NCBI RefSeq assembly: GCF_021556475.1
Contig: NZ_JAKGBZ010000018.1
Coordinates: forward strand, 1-64,000
Source of the DNA: Acidiphilium iwatense
Lineage (GTDB): Bacteria > Pseudomonadota > Alphaproteobacteria > Acetobacterales > Acetobacteraceae
Length of the DNA stretch: 64,000 nt
Direction: 5' to 3'
The notes under the pieces were generated by a model. The model saw only the letters and a list, made by a program, of their open reading frames with translations, did no database searches and had not been told where the DNA came from. Made by a program: the position numbers and the translations under genes. Each line of letters opens with the position of its first letter. Position 1 is the stretch's first letter. Shown here piece by piece: positions 1-3,000 of the stretch.

Positions 1-3000
1 CACGCCCCCGCGCGGGGGGGCGACTTGGCGATCATGGGATGCTTTGAAAGCCACAAAGTGTTTCGATCCACGCCCCCGCGCGGGGGGCGACGGCCGGCGG
101 TCGAATAGACGATCGGATAGTCGTAGTTTCGATCCACGCCCCCGCGCGGGGGGCGACCACGGTGGTATTCCGTGGTGTTGACGCCGCCGAGGTTTCGATC
201 CACGCCCCCGCGCGGGGGGCGACCATCGCGCTTCCCGCCGAGGCCAAAGCCGATTGGGTTTCGATCCACGCCCCCGCGCGGGGGGCGACTCGAGCAGAAC
301 GCGCCGCACCCGAGGTTGTAGATGTTTCGATCCACGCCCCCGCGCGGGGGGCGACCTGCGAGAACGTCTTGATCAGGCCCGGTTCGGTGTTTCGATCCAC
401 GCCCCCGCGCGGGGGGCGACGTGCGATGTCAGCGCGGTCCAGGCAATAGCCGAGTTTCGATCCACGCCCCCGCGCGGGGGGCGACGTGCATGGTGTGGTC
501 GTCCCGGAGTGGGTCGTTCTGTTTCGATCCACGCCCCCGCGCGGGGGGCGACCGCCCGATCTCGATCCATTTATCGCGCCAAGCAGGTTTCGATCCACGC
601 CCCCGCGCGGGGGGCGACCTTGGCGGATTCCTCATGCGACGGCGGCGTCGAGTTTCGATCCACGCCCCCGCGCGGGGGGCGACTCGTCTCATCGTCCTTC
701 GGCCTGAGCCCGATCTGGTTTCGATCCACGCCCCCGCGCGGGGGGCGACTCAGAAACGTCCATCACGCCACCGCAATGCAGTCGTTTCGATCCACGCCCC
801 CGCGCGGGGGGCGACCTGTGGGCGCTGATCGTCTCGCAGCCCAGCCTTGTTTCGATCCACGCCCCCGCGCGGGGGGCGACTTCGGGCACACCGATGACAG
901 CGGCGATCTGACGGGTTTCGATCCACGCCCCCGCGCGGGGGGCGACGCCCGCGTTTAACGCGGGATTGGCGGCTGCGCTGTTTCGATCCACGCCCCCGCG
1001 CGGGGGGCGACCTTGCATGATCCGCGCGCTCGATGTATGCCGCAGTTTCGATCCACGCCCCCGCGCGGGGGGCGACTTCCTTATCAGTCATGGCTTTGCT
1101 CCTTTTTGTGTTTCGATCCACGCCCCCGCGCGGGGGGCGACAGGAAACGCGTGTAATTATAGTGTAGATAGATTGTTTCGATCCACGCCCCCGCGCGGGG
1201 GGCGACCACAAGACAACGGCGCCGTTCTGTCTCTCACTGGTGTTTCGATCCACGCCCCCGCGCGGGGGGCGACCGGCCGCTTTTGGCACCCTTGGCATCA
1301 CCCAGCCGTTTCGATCCACGCCCCCGCGCGGGGGGCGACCTCGACCACGATGAGACCTACGGCACGCTCTATGGGTTTCGATCCACGCCCCCGCGCGGGG
1401 GGCGACTCCTCGCCACGGTATCAGGGCAGACGGCACAGACCGCGTTTCGATCCACGCCCCCGCGCGGGGGGCGACAATCGCAGCAGACCTCTGCAGCCGC
1501 CTCCGTGGCGTTTCGATCCACGCCCCCGCGCGGGGGGCGACAACCGTCCTGTTCGTTTGGCTGATCGGCAACCAGTTTCGATCCACGCCCCCGCGCGGGG
1601 GGCGACCACCGCGACTCGCTGGCAGTGCGCGAGATGATAGTTTCGATCCACGCCCCCGCGCGGGGGGCGACTTATGCGAGGGCCAGTGCCAAGGCGCGCA
1701 GCGTAGTTTCGATCCACGCCCCCGCGCGGGGGGCGACACGATCCCCATGCCGATCCGGCCAGCCAGCGCCGCGTTTCGATCCACGCCCCCGCGCGGGGGG
1801 CGACCGCACGAGGGCGAGCCATATGGCCACGTCACCCGTTTCGATCCACGCCCCCGCGCGGGGGGCGACTTGCCCTCGGCTGCCGTGCTGATCGGCGAGT
1901 CGCTGTTTCGATCCACGCCCCCGCGCGGGGGGCGACTGGCCGGCCGTCGTGATCTCTGAATGGAAACTTTTGTTTCGATCCACGCCCCCGCGCGGGGGGC
2001 GACACGGCGCTCAGGTGCAGGCGGAGCAGATTGCCGCGTTTCGATCCACGCCCCCGCGCGGGGGGCGACGATCATCGGGGTTGGGAATATCGAAAATCTG
2101 TATGTTTCGATCCACGCCCCCGCGCGGGGGGCGACAGAGGCGATGCGTTTAGCGCTCGATTGTGGATTAGTTTCGATCCACGCCCCCGCGCGGGGGGCGA
2201 CCTGATAATCGGCCGCGCCGTCGGGAAACTCAGCCTGTTTCGATCCACGCCCCCGCGCGGGGGGCGACCCCAGCCGGTGCACGAACAGAGACGGACATCC
2301 GTGTTTCGATCCACGCCCCCGCGCGGGGGGCGACTTGTGTTGATCTGGAACCAATCGACCGCATACCAGTTTCGATCCACGCCCCCGCGCGGGGGGCGAC
2401 CCGCATCGAAGCATGCCTCGACATACTCCGAGCAGTTTCGATCCACGCCCCCGCGCGGGGGGCGACGGTCATTTCTCGCATCACCAACGGCGCCGTCACT
2501 GCGTTTCGATCCACGCCCCCGCGCGGGGGGCGACTCCCCATGCTTTCTACAAGACCGTCATCTACAAAGTTTCGATCCACGCCCCCGCGCGGGGGGCGAC
2601 CGCGCACTGGACACCGACAATCTCTACGGATCGGTGTTTCGATCCACGCCCCCGCGCGGGGGGCGACGTGTCGCCAATAACGTGCTCGCGCTTCCGTTCC
2701 AGTTTCGATCCACGCCCCCGCGCGGGGGGCGACCCCAGCCGGTGCACGAACAGAGACGGACATCCATGTTTCGATCCACGCCCCCGCGCGGGGGGCGACC
2801 CCAGCCGGTGCACGAACAGAGACGGACATCCATGTTTCGATCCACGCCCCCGCGCGGGGGGCGACATGACAGCCTCCTGACGTCGCTCTCGAATATCGCG
2901 TTTCGATCCACGCCCCCGCGCGGGGGGCGACTTCGCGCTTCGGCCGCCTCGAATTGCACCCCGAGGTTTCGATCCACGCCCCCGCGCGGGGGGCGACCAG

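What the first reader, a model, noticed from the sequence alone, without database searches (positions are those of the whole stretch)
2269..2833. One spacer present three times
Spacers 2734-2767 and 2800-2833 are identical and adjacent; spacer 2269-2302 matches them except at the second-last base. Adjacent copies can arise by unit duplication, but the third copy lies seven repeats away and carries a change. That suggests repeated acquisition from variants of the same element, or duplication followed by movement and mutation.
Basis: seen in the sequence. Interest (0 to 1): 0.5.

Follow-up and report, generated by a model that had tools for sequence, protein, structure and literature searches.

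The report
Re-acquired spacer differing in the seed
A bacterium's CRISPR memory array holds the same foreign DNA fragment three times, and the odd copy differs at a spot where viruses can mutate to escape, so the cell probably re-learned a target after it changed.

Summary
[quoted passage not shown] Counted from the leader, spacers 9 and 10 are identical; spacer 17 differs only at position 2 from the PAM side.

I built a base rate instead: 133 type I-C arrays, 4,597 spacers. Block copies keep spacer length (26 of 26 pairs), adjacent copies mostly do (15 of 19), distant copies in 21 of 49, against 31% expected for independent capture. So distant copies look mostly like separate acquisitions, adjacent ones mostly like unit duplications.

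Distant pairs with exactly one mismatch have it in positions 1-5 in 7 of 10 groups (6 of 9 without the window). Phages escaping a Pseudomonas I-C system carried +2/+3 mutations (PMC7913775, passage).

Best reading: 17 was captured first, the element changed at seed position 2, the variant was captured later, and that unit was duplicated. The seed bias rests on few pairs: the planned hold-out contained none and a later extension gave one, outside the seed.

The parts
1..3391 (-). type I-C CRISPR array; 51 full-length 32-nt repeats in the window plus a partial variant repeat at base 1; continues on contig C146 of the same genome (18 full repeats, the first of which overlaps the window, plus two variant repeats, the first also overlapping)
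2800..2833 (-). spacer 9 from the leader, ATGG variant
2734..2767 (-). spacer 10, identical to spacer 9
2269..2302 (-). spacer 17, ACGG variant; differs at position 2 from the PAM/leader side (window base 2301)
750..783 (-). spacer 40; overlaps spacer 60 (contig C146, 716-748) by 21 nt on the opposite strand, a second double sampling of one element
25..59 (-). spacer 51, present in tandem twice on contig C146 (53-87 and 121-155) together with a repeat variant carrying one extra C
3392..3568 (-). region between array and cas2, inferred leader
   Evidence: position only; not tested
3569..3859 (-). cas2 (96-aa ORF)
   Evidence: named by position and size, not searched against a library
3865..4971 (-). 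cas1, type I-C (TIGR03640, 495 bits)
4902..5537 (-). cas4 (TIGR00372)
5534..6499 (-). cas7/csd2 (TIGR02589)
6496..8244 (-). cas8c/csd1 (TIGR01863)
8241..8921 (-). cas5c (TIGR01876)
9319..11571 (-). cas3: HD domain over its cut-off (TIGR01596); helicase core just under its cut-off (TIGR01587, 100.6 against 102.45 bits)

Best explanation
The trio records two encounters with one protospacer of a mobile element. Spacer 17 was integrated first. Later the element circulated with a C-to-T change at seed position 2, which would be expected to weaken targeting by the spacer-17 crRNA. The same protospacer, cut at the same PAM-side edge, was then captured again from the variant (spacer 10). Spacer 9 most likely arose by duplication of the spacer-repeat unit; a second consecutive capture is the minority alternative. 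Shown: the sequences, their order, and the base rates. Inferred: the polarity of acquisition from leader position, the direction of the change, the escape selection, and the target, which was not found.
For: (1) Base rate from 133 type I-C arrays, 4,597 spacers. Block-duplicated pairs have equal length in 26 of 26 and adjacent pairs in 15 of 19. Distant non-block pairs do so in 21 of 49, where 31% is expected for two random spacers of an array. With one more pair, the implied duplicated fraction is about 0.18 for distant, 0.69 for adjacent and 1.0 for block pairs. (2) 28 of the 49 distant pairs start at the same base but differ in length, which unit duplication does not produce. (3) 68 full repeats of this array show 0 substitutions, and 194 of 134,068 repeat bases differ across the set, so drift within a copied spacer is unlikely. 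A rough Bayes estimate gives 0.79-0.96 for independent capture without the position term, 0.93-0.99 with it. (4) Distant pairs with exactly one mismatch have it at positions 2, 2, 3, 3, 4, 4, 5, 22, 29 and 29: 7 of 10 groups in positions 1-5, 6 of 9 without the window (one-sided p = 0.0006; p = 0.004 for a 1-5,7,8 seed). Of five groups with two mismatches, four have one in positions 1-5; groups with 3-5 mismatches have 10 of 42 positions there. (5) A passage of PMC7913775: phages escaping a P. aeruginosa I-C system had point mutations at +2 and +3 from the PAM. (6) A passage of PMC5071653: in Legionella I-C, two independently acquired spacers hit the same protospacer. (7) Spacers 40 and 60 overlap by 21 nt on opposite strands, so this array sampled another site twice. 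(8) Spacer 51 is duplicated together with its mutated repeat, so unit duplication also happens here.
Against: No protospacer was found, so the two target alleles and the PAM are unseen. The three copies have equal length, as duplication would give; 36% is expected by chance in this array. Among the four single-mismatch groups whose unequal length proves independent capture, only 2 of 4 mismatches lie in positions 1-5. The pre-planned hold-out (29 arrays, 949 spacers) contained no qualifying pair, and a later extension gave one pair, at position 29. Two single-mismatch pairs aligned with a one-base shift, left out of the test, are also outside positions 1-5. 21 of the 49 distant pairs have no mismatch at all, so escape is not needed for a distant copy. 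SpacerPlacer (PMC11472070, passages) classed 695 of 805 duplicate candidates as duplications, 8 as reacquisitions and 7 as independent insertions, with other criteria.
Confidence: 0.7

Rival explanations
1. Repeated capture of a hot protospacer from a naturally polymorphic element, without escape selection; the seed position of the difference is coincidence, and 9/10 may also be two captures.
For: Independent recapture is common in these arrays; adjacent pairs of unequal length occur (4 of 19); 3 of 19 adjacent pairs, the window's included, have a third copy further away (WIN, L063, L097), as a hot protospacer would give; a hit in a seven-position seed by chance has probability about 0.2.
Against: Single-mismatch pairs cluster in positions 1-5 (7 of 10), pairs with 3-5 mismatches much less (10 of 42 positions).
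Confidence: 0.2
2. Duplication and rearrangement inside the array: a block or unit containing the spacer was duplicated by misaligned replication or unequal crossing over, later deletion left a distant single copy, and one copy mutated.
For: Block duplications exist in this set (26 pairs), the window's array shows a unit duplication with its repeat variant, and all three copies have equal length.
Against: It needs at least two rearrangements plus a mutation; no neighbouring spacers are copied with it; 68 full repeats show no substitution; length statistics leave about 18% of distant pairs to duplication.
Confidence: 0.1
3. Assembly artefact or strain mixture collapsed into one array.
For: The genome is a 156-contig draft and the array is split over two contigs whose 111-base overlap has one mismatch.
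Against: The trio lies well inside a contig, and copies 17 and the 9/10 pair are flanked by distinct spacers on both sides.
Confidence: 0.03

Closest known systems
Type I-C arrays with recurrent spacers (Legionella pneumophila, PMC5071653)
   Same: Type I-C; two independently acquired spacers for the same plasmid protospacer were seen in the laboratory (passage).
   Different: Those were laboratory acquisitions against a plasmid; here three copies lie in one natural array and one differs in the seed.
Type I-C escape phages of Pseudomonas aeruginosa (PMC7913775)
   Same: Escape mutations at +2 and +3 from the PAM (passage), the region where this pair and 6 of 9 other single-mismatch groups differ.
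   Different: That work looked at phages in the laboratory; here the trace is in the host array and the target is unknown.
Spacer-repeat unit duplication by replication misalignment (PMC8047081, PMC11472070)
   Same: Would explain adjacent identical spacers 9/10 and the spacer 51 pair (passages).
   Different: Does not by itself explain a distant single copy with a changed seed base.

Membership tests
Type I-C CRISPR-Cas | cas8c/csd1 signature gene | tested here: met
   TIGR01863, 493.5 bits against cut-off 218.65
Type I-C CRISPR-Cas | cas3-cas5-cas8c-cas7-cas4-cas1-cas2 operon with the array downstream | tested here: met
   order and strand of the ORFs; cas2 named by position and size only; cas3 helicase model just under its cut-off
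Type I-C CRISPR-Cas | about 32-nt repeat ending in GAAAC, spacers about 33-37 nt | tested here: met
Type I-C CRISPR-Cas | 5'-TTC PAM at protospacers | not testable with these tools
   no protospacer found
Independent re-acquisition of one protospacer | same PAM-side edge with a different far edge (length) | tested here: inconclusive
   same start, but equal length 34 in all three copies; expected in 36% of independent pairs in this array
Independent re-acquisition of one protospacer | both alleles present in the target population | not testable with these tools
Array-internal block duplication | neighbouring spacers copied in the same order | tested here: not met
   neighbours of 17 differ from neighbours of 9/10

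The most novel reading that the evidence does not exclude
Natural type I-C arrays hold pairs of spacers for one protospacer that differ by a single seed base more often than expected: a recorded history of escape followed by re-immunisation at the identical site. If it holds in larger sets, escape events could be read directly from host arrays without any viral sequence.
Probability: 0.45. Interest if true: 0.65.

Novelty: new member of a known kind. Interest (0 to 1): 0.42.

Why it matters
Near-identical spacers in one array are easily set aside as duplications. Spacer length and mismatch position help to separate copies made inside the array from copies captured anew. If single-mismatch pairs are indeed seed-biased, arrays keep a readable record of escape and counter-adaptation, which can be tested on the large public sets of CRISPR arrays.

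Tried and rejected
Protospacer searches gave nothing convincing: phages (blastn, a 17-nt hit at E = 4), plasmids (a 22-nt, 95.5% hit at E = 0.9 in Pararhizobium), IMG/VR exact 22-mer, genome contigs exact 22-mer, 397 genomes of the family with up to 3 mismatches (only the own array), four of six reading frames as wobble-degenerate patterns in IMG/VR (degeneracy partial, e.g. serine as TCN only), and the shared 21-mer of spacers 40/60 in IMG/VR. The array stretch window 60-3391 (50 of about 69 spacers) was compared with phages (three weak records, not opened) and plasmids (14 records); of the seven plasmid records opened, five show type I-C cas genes beside the match, two do not within the stretch.

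Sister strains: the collections hold one genome per species. The long array of the same-genus record L092 (Acidiphilium sp. STC_13) shares no spacer with the window's array, and no same-register match within 5 mismatches joins the window to any other array.

The idea that every adjacent pair is a duplication was dropped: 4 of 19 adjacent pairs have unequal length.

Seed bias, in order of events. The first parsers (66 arrays) gave 2 of 4 single-mismatch groups in positions 1-5, the window included; (94 arrays, 2,906 spacers) gave 6 of 8. The seed was named in a note before the comparison, but the 1-5 cut was chosen after seeing data; 1-5,7,8 and 1-8 cuts are. The hold-out written down gave 0 qualifying pairs. 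The changed parser found one more group in the old material (L092, position 3), and a later extension one at position 29. Pairs shifted by 1-3 bases were not counted: two with one mismatch (L123 at 21, L171 at 17) lie outside positions 1-5. The 49 distant pairs are not all independent (trios give two or three rows each). Not every locus found was fetched: 28 of 33 genomes and 20 of 27 (the rest already held or with cas1 at a contig edge), and 14 plasmid records in all of the 14 and 35 listed. Of 180 loci or sources scanned, 125 gave an array. Spacers under 28 nt, runs of fewer than four repeats and overlapping arrays were dropped before counting.

Literature: in the listings of nine paper searches (some listings partial, e.g. 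8 of 28) no title or abstract start reports seed-biased near-identical spacer pairs within arrays. Only passages of PMC5071653, PMC11472070, PMC8047081, PMC7913775 and PMC5749868 were seen; other listed papers were not opened.

Full report
What is there. The window is one end of contig C67 of a 4.16-Mb draft genome in 156 contigs. Bases 1-3391 are a CRISPR array whose 51 full 32-nt repeats are identical. On the minus strand it follows a type I-C operon: cas3, cas5c, cas8c, cas7, cas4, cas1 and cas2 (cas2 by position and size). The array continues on contig C146, which overlaps the window by 111 bases with one mismatch.

The trio. Read from the leader, spacers 9 (2800-2833) and 10 (2734-2767) are identical and spacer 17 (2269-2302) differs only at position 2. 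That is the PAM-proximal, seed end of a type I crRNA (general knowledge of type I systems). No other place in the genome matches within 3 mismatches.

Other signs in the same array. Spacer 51 is duplicated in tandem together with a repeat that has an extra C, which marks a true unit duplication. Spacers 40 and 60 overlap by 21 nt on opposite strands, so one site was sampled twice in independent events.

The target and sister arrays. No protospacer was found in phages, plasmids, IMG/VR, genome contigs or 397 genomes of the family (limits under Tried and rejected). The collections hold one genome per species, so sister strains could not be compared; the Acidiphilium STC_13 array shares no spacer.

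A base rate. To judge how such copies usually arise, type I-C loci were collected: 77 from genome contigs, 27 stretches from family genomes, and more from the class, the phylum, one further class and plasmids. Of 180 sources scanned, 125 gave arrays: 133 arrays with 4,597 spacers. Within arrays, same-start pairs with up to 5 mismatches fall into block pairs (26, all equal length), adjacent pairs (19, 15 equal) and distant pairs (49, 21 equal). Two random spacers of one array have equal length in 31% of cases. Duplication keeps length, while a new capture keeps only the PAM-side edge. The numbers imply that about four fifths of distant pairs are new captures and about two thirds of adjacent pairs are duplications (which adds one distant pair). 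These fractions are rough, because rows within a trio are not independent.

Mismatch position. Nine distant groups with exactly one mismatch were found in the 133 arrays: positions 3, 4, 2, 4, 5, 29, 22, 3 and 2 (the window). An extension of one array by 132 spacers gave a tenth, at position 29. Thus 7 of 10, or 6 of 9 without the window, lie in positions 1-5, where about 1.5 and 1.3 are expected (one-sided p = 0.0001 and 0.0006; with a 1-5,7,8 seed p = 0.001 and 0.004). Of five groups with two mismatches four have one in positions 1-5 (4 of 10 positions), and groups with 3-5 mismatches have 10 of 42 positions there (one-sided Fisher p = 0.004 against the nine single ones). Against this: the pre-planned hold-out of 29 arrays had no qualifying pair, the later extension's single pair was outside the seed, two shifted single-mismatch pairs left out of the test are outside it too, and among the four groups with unequal length the split is 2 of 4. 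The bias is a lead, not an established fact.

Fit with published work. A passage of PMC7913775 reports that phages escaping a P. aeruginosa I-C system carried point mutations at +2 and +3 from the PAM; the window pair differs at +2. A passage of PMC5071653 reports two independently acquired I-C spacers hitting the same protospacer. Passages of PMC11472070 class 695 of 805 duplicate candidates as duplications, 8 as reacquisitions and 7 as independent insertions, from comparison of related arrays; [quoted passage not shown]

Conclusion. The distant copy is most likely a second capture of the same protospacer from a variant that had changed in the seed, and the adjacent pair is most likely a unit duplication. 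The escape step is inferred. The array and its system are ordinary; the possible seed bias of single-mismatch pairs is the part worth following.

Noticed in passing
window 750-783 and L009 716-748: Spacers 40 and 60 overlap by 21 nt on opposite strands: two independent captures from one site; no exact match in IMG/VR for the shared 21-mer.
   Followed up: partly
window 25-59 and L009 53-188: Spacer 51 is present twice in tandem together with a repeat carrying an extra C, a marked unit duplication.
   Followed up: yes
window 97 and L009 15: The two contigs that share the array overlap by 111 bases with a single mismatch in spacer 50, near the contig end: edge error or strain variation.
   Followed up: partly
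L010 (G000 contig C85), about 4956-5046: A short remnant near the contig end with one full repeat two mismatches from the array's and one partial copy, apart from the main array.
   Followed up: no
L063 and L097: Two other I-C arrays also have an adjacent identical pair plus a third copy 5-6 units away; in L063 the third copy differs in length.
   Followed up: partly
L222 (G791 contig C75): An 8.9-kb contig that is in essence all CRISPR array (132 spacers); that genome has 292 repeat matches on one strand.
   Followed up: partly
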